DNA of 64,000 nt from the NCBI GenBank assembly GCA_017439665.1, contig JAFSIS010000001.1, forward strand, positions 62,001 to 126,000. The letters run 5' to 3'. The position numbers were made by a program, and so were the translations under genes. The stretch is from Lachnospiraceae bacterium. Lineage in GTDB: Bacteria > Bacillota > Clostridia > Lachnospirales > Lachnospiraceae. This document shows, piece by piece, positions 10,911 through 18,011 of this stretch; position 1 is the stretch's first letter; each line of letters begins with the position of its first letter. Under the pieces are notes generated by a model, which was not told where the DNA came from, did not search any database, and worked only from the letters and a program-made list of their open reading frames with translations.

Positions 10911-10946
10911 AGTATACCTCATATATATAGCAAATTTTATTTAAAA

Positions 10947-10985
10947 AATCCACTATACCGATAGTTATTATCAGTATAGTGGATT
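10947..10985 (-). terminator. terminator between the reverse transcriptase and crp-type genes
   Basis: A 12-bp perfect stem (10947-10958 with 10974-10985) is extended by GATA/TATC beyond one mismatch. A T-run follows on the minus transcript. It lies 156 bases past the reverse transcriptase stop; the stretch between shows no gene. Confidence 0.75.
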
Positions 10986-11140
10986 TATTTGCCTAAAGCT
11001 TTTCGCCCCATCTAAATTACGTCACCTCAGTTCTTATATCAGATTCTGTATTCCTATTATCTTATCTATCCTAATATATATCAATTCAAAAATCCAGTTC
11101 TATTTATATTTTTCAACCGAATAATTGAATCTTTATGATG

Positions 11141-12355
11141 TCAGGATTGTTTTGCTTTTGTTCCATCACGATCCTTATAGTAAGCAGTAATCAGGGGGCG
11201 GTATCCGTTTTCTGTCAGCATATTATAAGAAACCTTTCTGTAATTTGCCTTATTATGCTTCCCTGTCACAATATACCTCTGCCAGTCCTGCATATAGCGA
11301 TCGATCACATGCAGGGACTGATCCGTATTGATCATGGGAAAGTACCAGCGGCTCCAGCAAAGCTCATTGTGCATCTCTGTATCATAGAACTTCCGGTTAA
11401 ATCTTCGGTTAAAGGCTTTGAGGGCACGTTCCGGATTCGCTCCCTTTTTCAGCATCCATCTTCTCATAGCTCTGGCTGCCCTCCGTATTTTATCCATAAG
11501 CTTTTTGACCGCAATAGCAGATATATCTATGGTTTTGTTATCGTAATCAAAGCCCAGGAAATTCCATTTTTTCCCCGGTGCGAAATACTGTTCCTTGGAT
11601 GGGTTCGAAGTAAGGCGGTATTTCTGTAAAAATGCCTTGTATGCCGCAATATGCTCTTCCATCTCCTCCGGCCTTCCGAAAATCAGGGTATCATCCGAAT
11701 AGCGCCCATACAGTACATCTTTTTGGGCAAAATATTCATCCATCTCCATTAGATAAAGATTCGCAAAAAATGGTGCTGTAGGTGTCCCTGCCATTACACC
11801 TCTCTGCTCCCGAATTTCTTTTCCCTTCCATATCGCCCGGTCATCCTGTAAAAGGTTTGTAAGCAGCTGCAGCAGTGCCGGATCATCTGTTATCATCTTC
11901 TGAAGTATGGGCAACAGCAAGGACACATCAATACTGTTAAAATAATTGCTGATATCAGATTTAAAACCGGACAGACTGCCAATCTCAGGAGCATTTGCCA
12001 TCTTCCTGAAAGCCTTTCTCGGCCCCATATGCTTACGGAAGGCATAACAGTTGTCAGGAAACATCTTATCATACCGGTAAAGCATCCAGCAGATCATTTT
12101 TAAAAGCATATTTTCCTCCTCAGGAAAACAGTAAACAACACGTTTTTTGGAGGTACCCAGCTTATTCAGTTCCTTTTTTTCAGGTATAGAAAAACAGAAC
12201 TCACCCGATATCACCTTCTGTGCTGCAGGCAGATACTTTTTGTTTTCTATAAAATCTCTCAGAAAAAGTTCTTCCTCTGAGGAAAACAGCCTTTTGGATA
12301 TCTTATAATCCAAGAACTCCAGCCATAATTCGTGGGAAAGAAGATTCTCAAGCAT
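11141..12355 (-). CDS. stand-alone reverse transcriptase (group II-like or unclassified defence type)
   Basis: The start is the ATG at 12355, preceded by AAAGGAG; the frame stays open further upstream but enters a terminator hairpin. The 404-residue protein has fingers/palm motifs in order: a basic substrate block after IPEKKELNKL (about 58), motif A FKSDISNYFNSID (catalytic Asp134), the GTPTAPFFANLYL block (190-202), the catalytic YSDD (219-222, where most relatives have YADD), and NPSKEQYF...WNFLGF (251-269). A helical, basic C-terminal part follows, with no maturase DNA-binding or HNH endonuclease domain. No intron structure surrounds it. A promoter, a short structured RNA and a terminator lie directly upstream, as in retron-like and DRT systems. 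The exact RT class is not decided here. Confidence 0.9.
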   Translation of the reverse strand: MLENLLSHELWLEFLDYKISKRLFSSEEELFLRDFIENKKYLPAAQKVISGEFCFSIPEKKELNKLGTSKKRVVYCFPEEENMLLKMICWMLYRYDKMFPDNCYAFRKHMGPRKAFRKMANAPEIGSLSGFKSDISNYFNSIDVSLLLPILQKMITDDPALLQLLTNLLQDDRAIWKGKEIREQRGVMAGTPTAPFFANLYLMEMDEYFAQKDVLYGRYSDDTLIFGRPEEMEEHIAAYKAFLQKYRLTSNPSKEQYFAPGKKWNFLGFDYDNKTIDISAIAVKKLMDKIRRAARAMRRWMLKKGANPERALKAFNRRFNRKFYDTEMHNELCWSRWYFPMINTDQSLHVIDRYMQDWQRYIVTGKHNKANYRKVSYNMLTENGYRPLITAYYKDRDGTKAKQS

Positions 12356-12372
12356 AGTCAATAAACTCCTTT

Positions 12373-12529
12373 TAAAAAAAATGGCAGCCCTTCGAAAAGG
12401 ACTGCCTGTTGCGGGAAAGGCTTTGAGGCCCTGTAAGGGCCACGAAGTCACACTAATGCACAGCCGTCTGCACAGCCGTCTATATGCATTGCTTCACTCC
12501 GATGCAGACATTTTAAAAAAATATCCCAC
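12373..12529 (-). ncRNA. putative structured RNA upstream of the reverse transcriptase
   Basis: Between a sigma-A-type promoter and a strong terminator lies about 150 bases with no good gene. It contains a 12-base tandem duplication (12457-12480), a GTCTGCA/TGCAGAC pairing and an AATGCA/TGCATT pairing around it, and a TGGCCC/GGGCC hairpin near 12428. The order promoter, RNA, terminator, RT gene resembles the ncRNA-RT loci of retrons and DRT systems. The alternative is an untranslated leader with an attenuator. The boundaries are estimates from promoter and terminator positions. Confidence 0.5.
12374..12406 (-). terminator. strong Rho-independent terminator just before the reverse transcriptase gene
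   Basis: A 10-bp stem (arms 12383-12392 and 12397-12406, one G-T wobble) with a TTCG tetraloop is followed by eight U on the minus transcript. It lies 19 bases before the RT start codon, so RT expression needs read-through or processing. It could instead end the upstream zinc-ribbon operon. Confidence 0.88.
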
Positions 12530-12535
12530 ATTTTG

Positions 12536-12564
12536 ATTTTATATCAGTCCACTACTCTCGTCAA
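12536..12564 (-). promoter_or_regulatory. sigma-A-type promoter for the putative RNA and reverse transcriptase
   Basis: On the minus strand TTGACG (12559-12564) and TAAAAT (12536-12541) are separated by exactly 17 bases. This is a near-consensus promoter starting transcription at about 12529. It lies between the end of the zinc-ribbon operon and the putative RNA. Confidence 0.65.
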
Positions 12565-12582: not shown

Positions 12583-13017
12583 CTACTTTAAGATTTTTAT
12601 TCCTCCGATCAGCGGCAATGGTTTCATTTCTCCTTTGCAGACATTTACGATACCAAGCACTGCCAGAACAGTGAAAAGAATGCCTACAAGACCAAGGATG
12701 GATATAACAAAGTACAGCCGCCAGGAAATAGCCAGAATAATGGCGCTCAATATGGAATAAGCAACACTATAGGCTATAGCAGCCAAACACAGTACCAATC
12801 CCTGATTTGCATGATATTGGGCAAAAGGAGATTCCTTTGCCGCAAAGATGGGAACCAGCACCAGGGGACCCAGATAAGCGAGGATTCCCATTGCCTTATT
12901 ATCCTGAGCATCCCTGATGTCAGCCTGCTGAGGTGATACAGTTGTATCGGCTCCACAGGAAGGGCAAAATCTTGCTCCGTCTTCATATTTTGTACCACAT
13001 TTTCCACAAAAAGCCAT
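12583..13017 (-). CDS. zinc-ribbon protein with DUF4870-like membrane domain
   Basis: The start is at 13017, with AAGGAGG eight bases upstream. The 144-residue product begins MAFCGKCGTKYEDGARFC, a four-cysteine zinc ribbon (CxxC, spacer, CxxC). It continues into a membrane domain with about three hydrophobic segments and the pattern PFAQYHANQGLVL, typical of DUF4870-like proteins. It should be an integral membrane protein with the ribbon on one face. It is the last gene of the nine-gene operon. Function unknown. Confidence 0.82.
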   Translation of the reverse strand: MAFCGKCGTKYEDGARFCPSCGADTTVSPQQADIRDAQDNKAMGILAYLGPLVLVPIFAAKESPFAQYHANQGLVLCLAAIAYSVAYSILSAIILAISWRLYFVISILGLVGILFTVLAVLGIVNVCKGEMKPLPLIGGIKILK

Positions 13018-13057
13018 AATAAAAACCTCCTTCGTGATTATCATTTATTTTTTCTTT

Positions 13058-13822
13058 TTATACCAGCTTATTTCCGCATCCTCCGCAGAATCTTGTTCCC
13101 GGTGAATTCTGTGTTCCGCACTTTGCACACTTTCCGGCAGGCACTGTGGCCGCTACTGAAAGATTTTCTCCACAATTATTGCAAAAGCGTACATTCCGGG
13201 AATTTTCTGCACCACATTTCGGACATTTTTTCAATTCCATGGAAGCCCCACAGTTATTACAGAATTTTCCGCTGCCCGCAGGCTTTCCACAGGTAGGGCA
13301 AACAGTAGTACGGCTACCGATTTTACCCTGCCATACCGTAGCAGCGGCTCCGGCAGCATCTATATTCCTTTTCATAGCTTCTGCCCTGGCCCTTGCTACA
13401 TAGATTTCCTGACGGGGTGCACATTCAGTACACAGTCCCTCATCTTCATTAAAACAATGGCTACAGACATATTTGTTACAGGAAGGACATCGTTTAAAAT
13501 GGCGCATTGCCTCATTTTTGGCTCTCTCAAAAGCCTGCTCATGTTCCTTCTGCCACTCCGGAGATCTGCCTTCAAATCTTTCACCTAAAATATCGCTGGC
13601 CCGGTCTGCACCATAACCTATTCTGCTGGCTCTTCCCCCAAGCAGACTGCCCAACGCACTGGCACCTCGTCCAATATTGGTGAAAAGCTTTCCTTTTTTG
13701 TAGGTTTCACTTTCAATAAAGCTGCTTCGGAAACCATCGTTGCAGATATCACAGTAAAAAGTGAACTGGAAACCTGCCTCCGTAGAATTATCCTGATAAT
13801 TTCTTGTAAATGATGTCAGCAT
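13058..13822 (-). CDS. multi-zinc-ribbon protein
   Basis: The 254-residue protein carries many cysteine pairs. FYCDICNDGF lies near the N-terminus. The block CPSCNKYVCSHC...CTEC is near residue 110. Three C-terminal zinc ribbons follow (CPTCGKP..CNNCG, CPKCGAEN..CNNCG, CAKCGTQN..CGGCG). Between residues 40 and 80 is a glycine-rich segment; no membrane helix is clear. The start overlaps the stop of the upstream gene by 7 bases, suggesting coupled translation. It is probably cytosolic and binds several zinc ions; whether it contacts nucleic acid or protein is unknown. Confidence 0.8.
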   Translation of the reverse strand: MLTSFTRNYQDNSTEAGFQFTFYCDICNDGFRSSFIESETYKKGKLFTNIGRGASALGSLLGGRASRIGYGADRASDILGERFEGRSPEWQKEHEQAFERAKNEAMRHFKRCPSCNKYVCSHCFNEDEGLCTECAPRQEIYVARARAEAMKRNIDAAGAAATVWQGKIGSRTTVCPTCGKPAGSGKFCNNCGASMELKKCPKCGAENSRNVRFCNNCGENLSVAATVPAGKCAKCGTQNSPGTRFCGGCGNKLV

Positions 13823-14178
13823 TTTGGTATCTCCTTTCTGCCGCCAATGGCTGCCTTTATCTTTTTACCACATGCAGTACATTTGGTATTCTGGAAAAAC
13901 TGCAATGCTCCACAGCGTTTGTTTTCACAATAAACCATCAAACCGGCACCGCAAACCTCGCATCTTTCCTGCACAAAGGTACTTCCCCCACAGGTAGGGC
14001 ATGCCACGTACAAGGCTCTGGCACAGCCGGAGCATATTGCCTGCCCCTTCTGGATTGGCCTTTTGCAGGATGGACACAGATACCCAAAAGGACTCATGCT
14101 TCCACAGCTAATACAAATTCTTGCATCCGCTTCGATAAAAGTACCGCAGTGAACACATGGTTGTTTATAATCTGCCAT
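13816..14178 (-). CDS. small cysteine-rich zinc-ribbon protein
   Basis: The 120-residue protein is almost entirely CxxC motifs: CVHCG, CISCG, CPSCK, CSGCA, CPTCGG, CEVCG and CTACG, giving about four treble-clef or ribbon modules of the double zinc-ribbon type. There is no signal or membrane segment. AAAGGAG precedes the ATG. It overlaps the next gene by 7 bases. It has no enzymatic motif; a structural or scaffold role is likely. Function unknown. Confidence 0.78.
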   Translation of the reverse strand: MADYKQPCVHCGTFIEADARICISCGSMSPFGYLCPSCKRPIQKGQAICSGCARALYVACPTCGGSTFVQERCEVCGAGLMVYCENKRCGALQFFQNTKCTACGKKIKAAIGGRKEIPKC

Positions 14179-14208
14179 AAAATTATGCTCCTTTCATTTC
14201 GAAGAAGA

Positions 14209-14769
14209 TTATCCCTCTAATTTTGTTCCACAGCCTCCGCAAAACCGAATTCCGGGGGAATTCTCCTGTCCACAGGAAGGGCAGATTGCTGCTGTCTCTT
14301 CTGTTTGAAGCTTCGTTCCGCACTCCTGGCAGAATTTCACACCGACTGCATTTACCGCACCGCAGGAGGGACAGAGATTCTGTACTCCCAGCTTGCCTCC
14401 ACACTCCTGGCAGAACTTGGTTCCTTCCGGATTCTCATGGCCGCACTGGGAGCAGGTCCGTTCTGCTTTTGCTGCCTTTGCTGCATTCTCCCTGGCCTTT
14501 GCTTCACCCTTGGCAGCAGACAGCTTCTGTTCTGCAGCCGCAAGATTGGTCTGAATCAGTTTAAGCCGGTCTGCCACTTCACCAAAGCTCTCAAGTCCAT
14601 ATTGCTCCACAGCTTTTTGACCGATTTCAGTGTAAATTTCTGTTTCCTGTTTTTTCAGATCTGAAACTTCAGTCTGCATCTTTAATAGCTGCGCTCCCGG
14701 ATCATCTGCAGGCATTATACTGCTCAGTCCCTTCATCAATCCACCTAATCCACTTAAAATGTCCGCCAT
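14209..14769 (-). CDS. coiled-coil protein with three C-terminal zinc ribbons
   Basis: The 186-residue protein starts with a short glycine-rich segment, then a helical coiled-coil region (about 25-105) rich in Lys, Glu, Gln and Ala. Three zinc ribbons follow in tandem (CSQCG..CQECG, CPSCG..CQECG, CPSCG..CGGCG). The design suggests an oligomer displaying zinc modules. It lies 30 bases from the next gene and has its own GGAGG site. No function can be assigned from sequence. Confidence 0.78.
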   Translation of the reverse strand: MADILSGLGGLMKGLSSIMPADDPGAQLLKMQTEVSDLKKQETEIYTEIGQKAVEQYGLESFGEVADRLKLIQTNLAAAEQKLSAAKGEAKARENAAKAAKAERTCSQCGHENPEGTKFCQECGGKLGVQNLCPSCGAVNAVGVKFCQECGTKLQTEETAAICPSCGQENSPGIRFCGGCGTKLEG

Positions 14770-14817
14770 AAGTATACCTCCGTTGTTTTTATTTTTTATT
14801 GATTCCCTTGAATAATT

Positions 14818-15750
14818 TTATCCACCCATCAGACTGCTTAAATCCGGCAGTTCATACATATGATCAATGGTAACAGTACCTTCATAGTAAGACAGACTCA
14901 CATACACAGTCCCATCCGTACCCCACCATCCATAATCTGCCATATCTTCCTCGGATATGCCCATATCATAAAAATCCTGAAACTCATACCCGTCTGATTT
15001 CAGATCATTAATATACTCCCACATTTCTTCATGAGAAGTACCTGAAATCTCTGTGCGATAGGATGTAACCGCTGTCTGGGTTCCTCCGGGATATGAACGG
15101 AGTTCCCTGGGCCAGCCGGTACCGGCAGCCTCTGCTTCCGTATTGATTTTTGTTACATTATCCACAAGCTCATCCAGACCATTGGTACTTCCTTCACCAC
15201 TGATACCCTCCAGAGTACGAAGAAGATCACTTAACTCTTCCAGCTCCTGAATATTCTGGTTGGTAACATTATTGTTGTTGGAATCGGTTCCTCTATCAAG
15301 CTGGGTTATTGCCGCACCAAACAGGCTTTTGATGAGTAATCCCAAAATCAGACTGATAACAAGTCCAATGGCTGTCATGATGAGGGTAGCTCTCGCCAGA
15401 TTGCGTTTATTGATCTTTTTACATCCTCCAAAAGCCCAAACCAGTGTCAGGATCAATCCCACAACAGGTATGCACATTAACAGCATTATCCCTATGTATC
15501 CTCCTGTTGTGATCGGATCATACCTGCTTCCCTTTGCCGGAGTTACATCTGCACCGTAAACCGGTGGCGGAGTCTGCTGAACCGGTATAACCGGCGGCGC
15601 TGCCTGAACGGTCTTCTGATAGACAGGCTGCACATTCGTTATCTGCTCTGTATCCACCTGTGATTCTGCCTGTATTGGTATACCGCATTCCGTACAAAAT
15701 TTCTTATCATCAGATAGAGTTGCTCCACATTTCGTACAAAATTTTGCCAT
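14818..15750 (-). CDS. zinc-ribbon membrane protein with extracytoplasmic C-terminal domain
   Basis: The 310-residue protein has an N-terminal zinc ribbon (CTKCG..CTECG, residues 5-22) and a Pro/Gln-rich linker to about 70. Two hydrophobic helices follow (about 85-110 and 122-148), in a DUF4190-like arrangement. The C-terminal half of about 160 residues is acidic and aromatic and appears exposed outside the cell if the ribbon is inside. AAGGAG precedes the ATG. It sits mid-operon between the lipoprotein and the coiled-coil zinc-ribbon gene. Function unknown. Confidence 0.78.
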   Translation of the reverse strand: MAKFCTKCGATLSDDKKFCTECGIPIQAESQVDTEQITNVQPVYQKTVQAAPPVIPVQQTPPPVYGADVTPAKGSRYDPITTGGYIGIMLLMCIPVVGLILTLVWAFGGCKKINKRNLARATLIMTAIGLVISLILGLLIKSLFGAAITQLDRGTDSNNNNVTNQNIQELEELSDLLRTLEGISGEGSTNGLDELVDNVTKINTEAEAAGTGWPRELRSYPGGTQTAVTSYRTEISGTSHEEMWEYINDLKSDGYEFQDFYDMGISEEDMADYGWWGTDGTVYVSLSYYEGTVTIDHMYELPDLSSLMGG

Positions 15751-15773
15751 ATAATTACTCCTTTTTAATCTAT

Positions 15774-16187
15774 CTATTTCACACGTGTATAGGTTGCTCC
15801 GTCAAAGATTAAGGTATCTCCATCCAACTGATATTTTACCGTAGCAGATTCCTTTGCCAGCCCCAAAAGTGCCTTCATGGTAATTTCCATCTCTGTATCA
15901 CTCTTAATCTTATATTCCATACTCATAAGCATATCCAGACCTTCCAGTGCCTCTTCTACATCCTCTCCATCCGCATCTGATAATCCGGTAAGCAGTTCCT
16001 CCGTCAAACCATAACGAAGGGTACCATCCTTTTCAAATTCAATTCCCAGACCGTATTCAGTTGCCGTTTCTTCATCCACAATATGCCAGGTGCCAACGAT
16101 ATTTTTCTTATTTTCTCCTCCACAGGCTGTCAGGGATATTGCAAATAACAGCGTCAATAATGCCAAATAAATTCGTTTGTTTTTCAT
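15774..16187 (-). CDS. small lipoprotein
   Basis: The 137-residue product has a lipoprotein signal, with lipobox SLTAC and lipidated Cys22. The mature part begins IVGTWHIVDEETATEYG and resembles the small beta-rich domains (lipocalin/DUF4923-like) that start with a GTW motif. It should sit on the outer face of the membrane. It is the only operon member without a zinc ribbon. An AAGGAGG site is present. Function unknown. Confidence 0.78.
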   Translation of the reverse strand: MKNKRIYLALLTLLFAISLTACGGENKKNIVGTWHIVDEETATEYGLGIEFEKDGTLRYGLTEELLTGLSDADGEDVEEALEGLDMLMSMEYKIKSDTEMEITMKALLGLAKESATVKYQLDGDTLIFDGATYTRVK

Positions 16188-16224
16188 GATTTCAATCCTC
16201 CTTAGTAGTGTTTTGTGTCAGCTT

Positions 16225-17307
16225 TTATAAACGGGTACCACAGGTGCCGCAGAATTTGGTTCCTGCTGTATTTTTCGTACCGCACTGGCCACAGAATACC
16301 GGCCTGGCTTCCTTCGCTACTGCCTGCTGTGGCTGATGGTTTCCGGTTGGAGCCGTTTCCTGTGCTATATAACCGGCTCCCGCCGTACCTGACGCGTAGC
16401 CCGGCTGTGGACTTTCTTCCTGTCCCCTGGTAAAAAGCTCCTTGAATTTTTTAGACAGGCTGCACAGCTTGCTATATAAATCAAAAGTAATTGTAGTTGT
16501 AGGTGCAACACCCATGTAGGATGCCATCATCTGAATCATAATGTAGCTGTCCATTACTGCAAACTTCACGACCCATGCTACCAGACATGCCAGAAGAAAA
16601 GCTAACAGTCCCGGCCAGTTTAAAAGCTTAAACAAAAGTCCGATAGGGATAAAAATAATAAGTGCTACTACGATAGTCAGAAGAACTACCTTCAGCATGG
16701 TTTTTGCTGCATCTTTTAAAAGAACCTTCCAGTTCTGTGCGTAAATTACCACACCATCCGCAGCACTCTTAAATGCTCCCTGTTCCTTATTATAAAAGGT
16801 CCATCCCAGGCAGCACTCATCCACATACCCAAGGGCAATACTTACAAAGAACTGTGCTGCACTGGCAGCGGCCTCCATACCGGGGATAAAGTCCAGGGCA
16901 TTTCCCACCTTTCCAATTCCCTTCTGGATTTCACGCACTGCCGCAGTAACCAGCTTGTCTACTGCAAGATAAACGTTGGCTGTGGCAAAACGCTTAATTA
17001 CCATATCTTTGCCATAAGCGACCTGATTATCAGGTACCGTGCCGGTAAAACAGGCTTCGGCAATTACGGCTATGTGGCCGGCTTTGATCAGATACCCAAC
17101 ATACTGCATCAGGAAAAAGTGAATACCCTTCACTGCTGTCACCCAGATAATTGCCATAATAACCAGGATCAGTGCACTCTCAAACAGCCATCCTATGAGC
17201 ATCAAAATCACAAGAAGAATACTTGAGATCAGCACCAGTGCTCCGCCAAGTAAAAGCTTTGCCCATATGAACGGTGTAGTTTTGGAAAAAAGTTGCTTTG
17301 CTGTCAT
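16225..17307 (-). CDS. polytopic membrane protein with C-terminal zinc ribbon
   Basis: The start is at 17307: an ATG six codons earlier overlaps the AGGAGG that serves this one. The 360-residue protein has about five or six hydrophobic helices (two near 15-65, one near 140-165, two near 205-250). A hydrophilic linker precedes the C-terminal zinc ribbon CGQCGTKN..CGTCGTRL. The central region resembles CTL-like/choline-transporter-like permeases in the TFYNKEQGAFKSA context, but that match is loose and I do not assign transport. It is the largest membrane component of the operon. Confidence 0.75.
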   Translation of the reverse strand: MTAKQLFSKTTPFIWAKLLLGGALVLISSILLVILMLIGWLFESALILVIMAIIWVTAVKGIHFFLMQYVGYLIKAGHIAVIAEACFTGTVPDNQVAYGKDMVIKRFATANVYLAVDKLVTAAVREIQKGIGKVGNALDFIPGMEAAASAAQFFVSIALGYVDECCLGWTFYNKEQGAFKSAADGVVIYAQNWKVLLKDAAKTMLKVVLLTIVVALIIFIPIGLLFKLLNWPGLLAFLLACLVAWVVKFAVMDSYIMIQMMASYMGVAPTTTITFDLYSKLCSLSKKFKELFTRGQEESPQPGYASGTAGAGYIAQETAPTGNHQPQQAVAKEARPVFCGQCGTKNTAGTKFCGTCGTRL

Positions 17308-17340
17308 TGATTTATCCTCCTGCATTTTTTCTTATTTAAC

Positions 17341-17649
17341 TTAGTTTGTGATCTGTTTTTCTTTTACGGGTTTTACCTGTGTACTGCACTTAGGGCAGAA
17401 TAACATGTTTTTTGATAAAACAGTATCACAGTGGGGACAGACCGTATGCATATGCCTGTATATCTGAAACAGAGTATACCGAGGCAGACGATGCCCGCAT
17501 TCTTCACAAAATTGCCGGTCTGCATGGGACAGGTTTCCACAGTTCTTACATACTTTCTGTTTTTTCATGGAAATTGGCCCAAAACCAAAGTGTTCCATAT
17601 TTTCTTCCCATATTTGTTCAATTCTTTTTATTTCCTCCGGGGTCATCAT
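17341..17649 (-). CDS. small zinc-ribbon protein
   Basis: The start is at 17649, an ATG that overlaps the TGA of the upstream gene (ATGA) and uses the GGAGGTGA inside that gene's end. The 102-residue protein has a charged N-terminus and two zinc ribbons: CKNCGNLS..CEECG and CPHCDTV..CPKCS. It lacks a signal or membrane segment. Translational coupling with the first gene implies linked amounts of the two proteins. Function unknown. Confidence 0.76.
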   Translation of the reverse strand: MMTPEEIKRIEQIWEENMEHFGFGPISMKKQKVCKNCGNLSHADRQFCEECGHRLPRYTLFQIYRHMHTVCPHCDTVLSKNMLFCPKCSTQVKPVKEKQITN

Positions 17650-18011
17650 ATTGTCACCTCCATATAGCGGAGACGCGATCCACATTCCTTGCAGAAGGTA
17701 TCACCTGGAGATATTTTTGTTCCGCACTGAGAGCAAAACTCCGGTCTTGCTTCCCATGGAGCACAAGCTACACACTGAAATACGTCTGCGTTGTACATTG
17801 CATCACCAACCCAATTTCCACATTTGTGACAATGATTAAAGTACTGTTTCCCCTCTTCCCAGGCAATTTTTAATTCTTCTTCCTGCGTATCACCGCACAC
17901 AGGCTTTGTTGTACATATTGCCGCACCGCTTAATGCACAAAAAAAACGATATTTATTACCTCCTGTATCTGTTATAATTCTGTACCGGGCTGTGTTGCTT
18001 TTTCCCTCCAT
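17646..18011 (-). CDS. zinc-ribbon protein, first gene of the operon
   Basis: The start is at 18011, preceded by AAAGGAGG; an upstream in-frame ATG at 18077 lacks such a site. The 121-residue protein has an N-terminal domain with scattered cysteines (CALSGAAIC, HCHKCGNW, CVAC) and a C-terminal zinc ribbon CSQCGTKI..CKECG. It ends in an ATGA overlap with the next gene. The promoter should lie in the 280-bp gap shared with the divergent solute-binding protein gene. Function unknown. Confidence 0.77.
   Translation of the reverse strand: MEGKSNTARYRIITDTGGNKYRFFCALSGAAICTTKPVCGDTQEEELKIAWEEGKQYFNHCHKCGNWVGDAMYNADVFQCVACAPWEARPEFCSQCGTKISPGDTFCKECGSRLRYMEVTI

What the first reader, a model, noticed from the sequence alone, without database searches (positions are those of the whole stretch)
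11141..12564. Lone reverse transcriptase with its own promoter, structured RNA and terminator: possible new retron- or DRT-like defence unit
Seen: a 404-residue RT with all core motifs but YSDD rather than YADD at the active site and no maturase or endonuclease domain; upstream a TTGACG-17-TAAAAT promoter, about 150 bases of structured DNA, and a TTCG-loop terminator with eight U only 19 bases before the RT start. Known: retrons and several DRT systems have an ncRNA gene directly before the RT. Inferred: the small RNA is the RT template or cofactor, and RT is made by read-through. No intron ribozyme core is apparent. The group cannot be decided by eye.
Basis: partly seen in the sequence, partly recalled or inferred. 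Interest (0 to 1): 0.8.

Follow-up and report, generated by a model that had tools for sequence, protein, structure and literature searches.

The report
Defence-type reverse transcriptase with pseudoknotted RNA
This is a bacterial reverse transcriptase of UG26, a group catalogued among phage-defence enzymes but unstudied in the papers I could search, sitting behind its own small folded RNA that is conserved together with the enzyme and probably serves as its template; it matters because it turns an unexplored branch of RNA-guided DNA-making immune enzymes into something directly testable.

Summary
The RT (11141-12355, minus, 404 aa, YSDD) matches PADLOC's RT_UG26 profile along its whole length (E 8e-149), far above every other RT group, so it is a UG/DRT-type RT, not a retron or an intron maturase. 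YSDD is the normal UG26 motif (41 of 43). The upstream segment is a real noncoding RNA, found beside UG26 RTs in about 35 genomes. Its core is a pseudoknot with strong covariation (98% of cells paired, 15 of 17 pairs with double changes), enclosed by a covarying stem, with a hairpin just 5' of a conserved single-stranded YUYAA loop. That layout resembles the published template position in DRT10. A model built without the window still finds the RNA there (28.6 bits). About 25 UG26 loci also carry an upstream COG2852-like gene, already known to PADLOC. The window and at least ten others lack it, and 8 of 11 such loci instead have a promoter directly before the ncRNA. I found no published study of UG26 in the searchable papers. 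Templating, priming and phage defence are inferred; the DRT10 repeat pattern (A-B-A') was not above chance here.

The parts
11141..12355 (-). UG26 reverse transcriptase, 404 aa, active site YSDD (residues 219-222)
   Evidence: PADLOC RT_UG26 E 8e-149 over profile 4-396/398; AF2 model pLDDT 92.7; placed among UG26 homologues in the tree
12536..12564 (-). sigma-70 type promoter TTGACG-17-TAAAAT of the ncRNA
   Evidence: promoter of 9/12 or better at the same place in 8 of 11 UG26 loci lacking the partner gene, 1 of 22 with it
12408..12546 (-). UG26-associated noncoding RNA (covariance-model match)
   Evidence: R2, built without the window: 28.6 bits, E 0.021 in 201 kb, in the expected position; R1 43.2 bits; single copy in own genome
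12524..12530 (-). P1 closing stem, 5' strand (TGTGGGA)
   Evidence: pairs with 12410-12416; P1 is specific to each sequence across the family (-12.8 kcal own against -7.2 swapped, 0/5000)
12510..12522 (-). P2 hairpin (ATTTT-TTT-AAAAT)
   Evidence: read from sequence; the homologous hairpin position is visible in relatives
12504..12509 (-). P3 5' strand GTCTGC (pseudoknot helix)
   Evidence: pairs with 12466-12471; helix 100% paired in 32 sequences, all 6 pairs with double changes
12496..12501 (-). P5 5' strand CGGAGT
   Evidence: pairs with 12443-12448
12483..12490 (-). P4 5' strand AATGCATA
   Evidence: pairs with 12455-12462; P4 covaries in 6 of 7 pairs across the family; the window register is shifted relative to relatives
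12466..12471 (-). P3 3' strand GCAGAC
12455..12462 (-). P4 3' strand TGTGCATT
12443..12448 (-). P5 3' strand ACTTCG
12427..12441 (-). P6 hairpin GGCCC..GGGCC directly 5' of the candidate template; same position as SL5/template boundary in DRT10
   Evidence: hairpin more stable than shuffles in 32 of 32 sequences
12417..12426 (-). candidate template loop UCAAAGCCUU (family consensus YUYAA...)
   Evidence: conserved single-stranded position between P6 and P1'; one A of it is invariant in A1; template role inferred
12410..12416 (-). P1 closing stem, 3' strand TCCCGCA
12374..12406 (-). intrinsic terminator, TTCG loop and eight U
12366..12373 (-). ribosome-binding site AAAAGGAG of the RT
   Evidence: sequence

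Best explanation
A UG26 defence-associated RT unit in its partner-less form. A short promoter-terminator gene makes a ncRNA of about 120-150 nt. It folds into an enclosing stem (P1), a small hairpin (P2), a P5-P4 hairpin whose apical loop pairs back upstream (P3 pseudoknot), and a hairpin (P6) immediately 5' of a conserved single-stranded loop. The RT, translated from read-through or minor transcripts, binds this RNA. P6 positions the loop (UCAAAGCCUU here) in the active site as a short template, as in DRT3a, DRT9 and DRT10, and a short, probably repetitive cDNA is made, possibly primed from a C-terminal tyrosine (Y392/Y393). The DNA or the activated complex then blocks phage growth or kills the infected cell. 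SHOWN here: RT group, the RNA, its covarying pseudoknot, its linkage to the RT, and the two operon layouts. INFERRED: binding, templating by this loop, priming, cDNA product, defence. My estimates: RT-ncRNA functional pair 0.92; ncRNA is the template 0.65; the P6-P1' loop is the template site 0.55; phage defence 0.75.
For: UG26 profile match over full length. Homologues in 23/200 genomes of the family and 27/392 of the order, but only the own genome among 7 of the genus, i.e. patchy as defence genes are. ncRNA conserved upstream of the RT in about 35 loci. Covariation: 98% of cells paired, 15/17 pairs with double changes, score 0.735 against 0.313 shuffled and at most 0.21 when slid. P1 0/5000 and P6 32/32. 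Promoter rule. Next-best groups include UG27 and UG17 = DRT10; DRT9 and DRT2 are the closest UG folds in the PDB. [quoted passage not shown]). UG26 ends in a conserved (E)YY (Y392 in 88%).
Against: No RNA, cDNA or phage data. The DRT10-type A-B-A' repeat around the loop is no more frequent than after swapping or shuffling. The loop is partly fixed (YUYAA), which could equally mean RT recognition. The usual UG26 partner gene is missing here, so this copy may be degenerate or work differently. The window RNA scores lowest of the ncRNA-bearing loci searched with R2 (28.6 bits).
Confidence: 0.6

Rival explanations
1. The ncRNA is only a scaffold or activator: the RT makes DNA without this template (as Class 1 UG/Abi RTs do) and the RNA controls assembly or activation.
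For: A-B-A' not detected; the loop conservation could be protein recognition; a structural scaffold role of the ncRNA is established for DRT9.
Against: Group-level relatives with in-cis ncRNAs (DRT2, DRT3a, DRT9, DRT10) use them as templates; the conserved unpaired loop lies next to a boundary-like hairpin.
Confidence: 0.17
2. The structured segment is a cis leader (attenuator or riboregulator) of the RT mRNA and not a partner RNA.
For: It ends in a terminator 18 bases before the RT start; the same order holds in relatives.
Against: The pseudoknot, YUYAA loop and P1 are conserved even where no separate terminator follows P1; its own promoter is present in partner-less loci; Rfam has no match; related UG groups have RT-bound RNAs at this place.
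Confidence: 0.1
3. DRT2-like mechanism: a longer stretch of the RNA is copied round and round to build a repetitive open reading frame.
For: Also a UG RT with a pseudoknotted ncRNA just upstream; the DRT2 fold is close (Z 21.7).
Against: No clear frame-open signal: mean longest open run 39.6 codons against 35.7 shuffled, window 31 codons of 136 nt; Drt2 model 56.7 bits against a cut-off of 390.
Confidence: 0.07
4. Retron: the upstream RNA is msr-msd and the product is branched msDNA.
For: Upstream ncRNA; weak retron-model similarity (42.8 bits).
Against: Far below the cut-off of 235; UG26 profile 493.7 bits; I saw no msr/msd-like inverted-repeat layout.
Confidence: 0.02
5. Decayed group II intron with its maturase.
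For: Best overall fold match is GsI-IIC RT (Z 30.6).
Against: No Rfam intron match; maturase model 91.1 against 300; the RT is intact and its family has its own ncRNA.
Confidence: 0.01

Closest known systems
UG26 group of UG/Abi (DRT) reverse transcriptases, PADLOC RT_UG26 (PDLC03764)
   Same: Full-length profile match (E 8e-149), same YSDD motif, same upstream ncRNA in about 35 relatives
   Different: Most relatives carry the COG2852-like gene (PADLOC RTasCOG2852) upstream; this copy does not and has a promoter before the ncRNA instead. No characterisation of UG26 was found in the searchable papers
DRT10 (UG17), telomerase-like
   Same: Compact RT, in-cis ncRNA of similar size, enclosing stem with inner hairpins, candidate template just 3' of a stable hairpin
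   Different: Lower profile score (103 against 494 bits); no SLATT gene; ncRNA model gives no hit in two UG17 loci; A-B-A' pattern not detected; loop partly fixed rather than variable; the pseudoknot found here is not in the text description of the DRT10 RNA
DRT9 (UG28)
   Same: RT plus in-cis ncRNA; closest UG structure in the PDB (Z 23.9 over 371 residues); conserved tyrosines near the C-terminus
   Different: No poly-U template; RT about 95 residues shorter; Drt9 profile only 55.7 bits
DRT2 (UG2)
   Same: Pseudoknotted neighbouring ncRNA with a lone RT
   Different: Drt2 model far below cut-off; no sign of an endless reading frame in the RNA
Retrons and group II intron RTs
   Same: RT core and fold; upstream structured RNA (retrons)
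   Different: Family models far below cut-off; no intron RNA found, no msr-msd layout seen

Membership tests
UG26 RT group | full-length match to the RT_UG26 profile, clearly above other RT groups | tested here: met
   493.7 bits against 120.7 for the next group
UG26 RT group | falls among other UG26 RTs in a tree | tested here: met
   within the UG26 set, sister of L002 (SH-aLRT 95), in a 17-row set (97); no non-UG26 RT groups were included as outgroup
UG26 defence locus with partner (PADLOC RTasCOG2852) | COG2852-like gene next to the RT | tested here: not met
   partner profile finds it in 25 of the long loci but nowhere in the 64-kb window at E <= 10; identity of the partner
UG26-associated ncRNA (defined here) | structured RNA directly upstream with P3/P4/P5 pseudoknot, P1 and P6 | tested here: met
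DRT10 (UG17) | UG17-type RT | tested here: not met
   RT_UG17 103 bits against RT_UG26 493.7
DRT10 (UG17) | SLATT membrane protein encoded alongside | tested here: not met
   no SLATT hit among the neighbours; the gene upstream is zinc-ribbon plus membrane helices
DRT10 (UG17) | A-B-A' repeat in the template loop | tested here: inconclusive
   2.67 observed, 2.67 swapped, 2.62 shuffled; T-rich loops give little power
DRT10 / DRT9 | protein-primed DNA synthesis from a C-terminal residue | not testable with these tools
   only conservation seen: Y392 88%, with F in some members
DRT2 | Drt2-type RT above curated cut-off | tested here: not met
   56.7 bits against 390
Retron | retron-type RT above curated cut-off | tested here: not met
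   only the St85 model listed, 42.8 against 235
Group II intron | intron RNA around a maturase-type RT | tested here: not met
   no Rfam match at gathering score; maturase model 91.1 against 300
DRT defence systems | RT-dependent protection from phage | not testable with these tools
   needs phage assays

The most novel reading that the evidence does not exclude
UG26 is a distinct ncRNA-templated defence RT with its own RNA architecture (a hairpin whose loop pairs back to the 5' side, feeding a fixed YUYAA template) and a new kind of short DNA product. It exists in two forms: with a COG2852-like nuclease-fold effector in one operon, or, as here, as a self-contained RT-ncRNA unit that repeatedly lost the effector and gained an independent ncRNA promoter.
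Probability: 0.35. Interest if true: 0.82.

Novelty: new variant of a known kind. Interest (0 to 1): 0.6.

Why it matters
The UG RTs with ncRNAs studied so far have each turned out to make a different, surprising DNA product (a gene, poly-dA, tandem repeats, TG repeats), and this group has been linked to the origin of telomerase. UG26 has, as far as I could search, no published RNA or product. A covariation-backed RNA model, a candidate template loop and two natural layouts (with and without the effector-like gene) make its product and its need for the effector directly testable.

Tried and rejected
A-B-A' template-resetting pattern: not above chance. DRT2-like endless reading frame in the RNA: no clear signal. 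A 13-nt exact copy of the loop sequence inside the RT gene (11411-11423): looked like a template-target relation but is not a family property (own 7.03 against swapped 6.87, 363/2000) and sits on Lys-Ala-Phe codons; antisense 63/2000, uncorrected. Empty-site comparison in six genomes of the genus: no shared neighbourhood, so no boundaries of insertion. Phage and plasmid records: no relative at E 1e-20; viral contigs give only three 31-34% relatives, without the ncRNA. Partner fold: modest model (pLDDT 81), best PDB match a restriction enzyme at E 0.019, so inconclusive. UG27 search found none in 200 genomes, with a silent control, so uninformative. Phylogenetic control of the promoter/partner link is underpowered: 3.0 pairs for against 0.3.

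Full report
OBSERVATION. On the minus strand, a promoter (12564-12536), a structured segment, a TTCG terminator with eight U (12406-12374), a ribosome-binding site and a 404-aa RT (ATG at 12355, stop at 11141) are present as described. The longer GTG-initiated frame from 12451 is just open sequence through the RNA. Promoter- and terminator-like sites alone are no commoner than in shuffled sequence, but the segment folds better than all 200 shuffles (z -4.2).

WHAT THE RT IS. Its best profile is PADLOC RT_UG26, 493.7 bits over nearly the whole profile; the next are UG27 (120.7), a general RT model (104.7) and UG17/DRT10 (103). Retron, Drt2 and group II models are far below their cut-offs. An AlphaFold2 model from 39 homologues is confident (pLDDT 92.7). 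Its nearest solved folds are a full-length group II RT (Z 30.6), then DGR, DRT9 (23.9) and DRT2 (21.7) RTs, i.e. fingers-palm-thumb without added domains.

DISTRIBUTION. UG26 RTs occur in 23 of 200 genomes of the same family and 27 of 392 of the order, rarely phylum-wide (2 of 398, both in the same family), and in the genus only in the own genome (1 of 7). None was found in phage or plasmid records, and only three distant relatives in viral contigs. The window RT pairs with L002 from a Bacilli MAG (SH-aLRT 95). This patchiness suits a horizontally moving defence gene but does not prove it.

THE RNA. Upstream regions of the homologues share a conserved block absent from Rfam. In an alignment of 32 (A1) I wrote down a pseudoknotted core: a hairpin P5-P4 whose apical region pairs, as P3, with the bases 5' of P5. 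The count gives 98.0% of cells paired, 15 of 17 pairs with changes on both sides and a covariation score of 0.735, against 0.313 for shuffles and at most 0.206 for slid versions. The closing stem P1 is sequence-specific: own 5' and 3' strands pair at -12.8 kcal/mol on average, swapped ones at -7.2, 0 of 5000 permutations as good. The hairpin P6 beats shuffles in 32 of 32. In the window the helices are P1 TGTGGGA/TCCCGCA, P3 GTCTGC/GCAGAC, P5 CGGAGT/ACTTCG, P4 AATGCATA/TGTGCATT and P6 GGCCC/GGGCC. The minimum-energy fold is a different, nested structure, which shows why folding one sequence was not enough.

HELD-OUT TESTS. Model R2 was built from 27 sequences without the window and with only P4 and P5 in its structure. 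It recovers five other loci whose RNA was not used in it (L018, L034, L045, L019, L002, all at E <= 8e-7; L181 is the same place as L045) and the window at the right place and strand, 12408-12546, 28.6 bits, E 0.021 in 201 kb. R1, trained with the window, finds only this copy in the own genome. The deep relatives L087, L100 and L103, three viral loci and two UG17 loci give nothing significant.

NEIGHBOURS. Twenty-five loci carry a gene just upstream of the ncRNA that PADLOC lists as RTasCOG2852 (12 of 17 aligned members). Its predicted fold is weakly restriction-enzyme-like. The window has none within 64 kb; its upstream gene (12583-13044) is a zinc-ribbon membrane protein in a run of zinc-ribbon genes without defence-profile matches. 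Presence and absence of the partner need at least 7 changes on the RT tree. Loci without the partner usually have a good promoter directly before the ncRNA (8 of 11 with 9/12 or better; shuffled 8.7%), loci with it do not (1 of 22; shuffled 4.9%) (Fisher p 1e-4). Shared ancestry inflates that p-value: independent pairs go the expected way 3.0 to 0.3, too few to test. The simplest reading is one operon transcript with the partner, and a stand-alone ncRNA gene without it.

HOW IT LIKELY WORKS. Class 2 UG systems studied so far use in-cis ncRNAs that template tandem-repeat cDNA (PMC13174585). [quoted passage not shown] In UG26 the unpaired stretch between P6 and P1' holds the same position and has a conserved YUYAA (UCAAAGCCUU here). 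I infer that this is the template and that P6 sets its 5' boundary. The DRT10 resetting repeat was not detected above chance, so the product may be short, fixed, or repeated by another rule. DRT9 and DRT10 prime from C-terminal residues. UG26 has a conserved C-terminal (E)YY (Y392 in 88%), but F occurs there in some members, so priming is open. UG26 being Class 2 is my inference from profile and fold neighbours; I could not read the original classification.

NOVELTY. UG26 and its COG2852-like partner are catalogued. In the searchable papers UG26 appears only as an annotation; the DRT papers and the 2026 overview that I read do not treat it. The ncRNA with its pseudoknot, the candidate template and the partner-less layout with its own promoter were not found described. 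A UG26 ncRNA prediction may exist in the 2022 UG/Abi survey, which is not held. I therefore call it a new variant of a known kind.

Noticed in passing
window 12457-12480: Perfect 12-nt tandem duplication (GACGGCTGTGCA twice on the minus strand) inside the ncRNA, spanning the P3' and P4' strands; the alternative copies could pair in two registers, perhaps a recent duplication or a switch.
   Followed up: partly
window 11411-11423 and 12416-12428: Exact 13-nt repeat CCTCAAAGCCTTT (minus strand) shared by the candidate template loop and the RT coding sequence; a 17-nt near-complement lies at 12005-12021. Not a family property.
   Followed up: yes
window 10946-10986: 41-bp near-perfect palindrome (AAATCCACTATACCGATAGTTATTATCAGTATAGTGGATTT) between the RT and the Crp/Fnr-like gene; about 45 bp of it recur on two other contigs of the same genome, so a mobile or repeated element or a shared terminator.
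   Followed up: partly
window 12583-17685: Run of zinc-ribbon proteins, several with membrane helices, co-directional with the RT; some UG26 loci elsewhere (L065, L096) have zinc ribbons fused to or next to the partner gene. Link not tested statistically.
   Followed up: partly
L065, L066, L085, L096: The COG2852-like partner has long N-terminal extensions (zinc-ribbon-like in L065 and L096, others in L066 and L085), suggesting exchangeable sensor or adaptor parts.
   Followed up: no
L087, L100, L101, L103: More distant relatives (25-36% identity) found with the UG26 profile or the window RT lack the ncRNA and the partner; they may be a separate RT group.
   Followed up: partly
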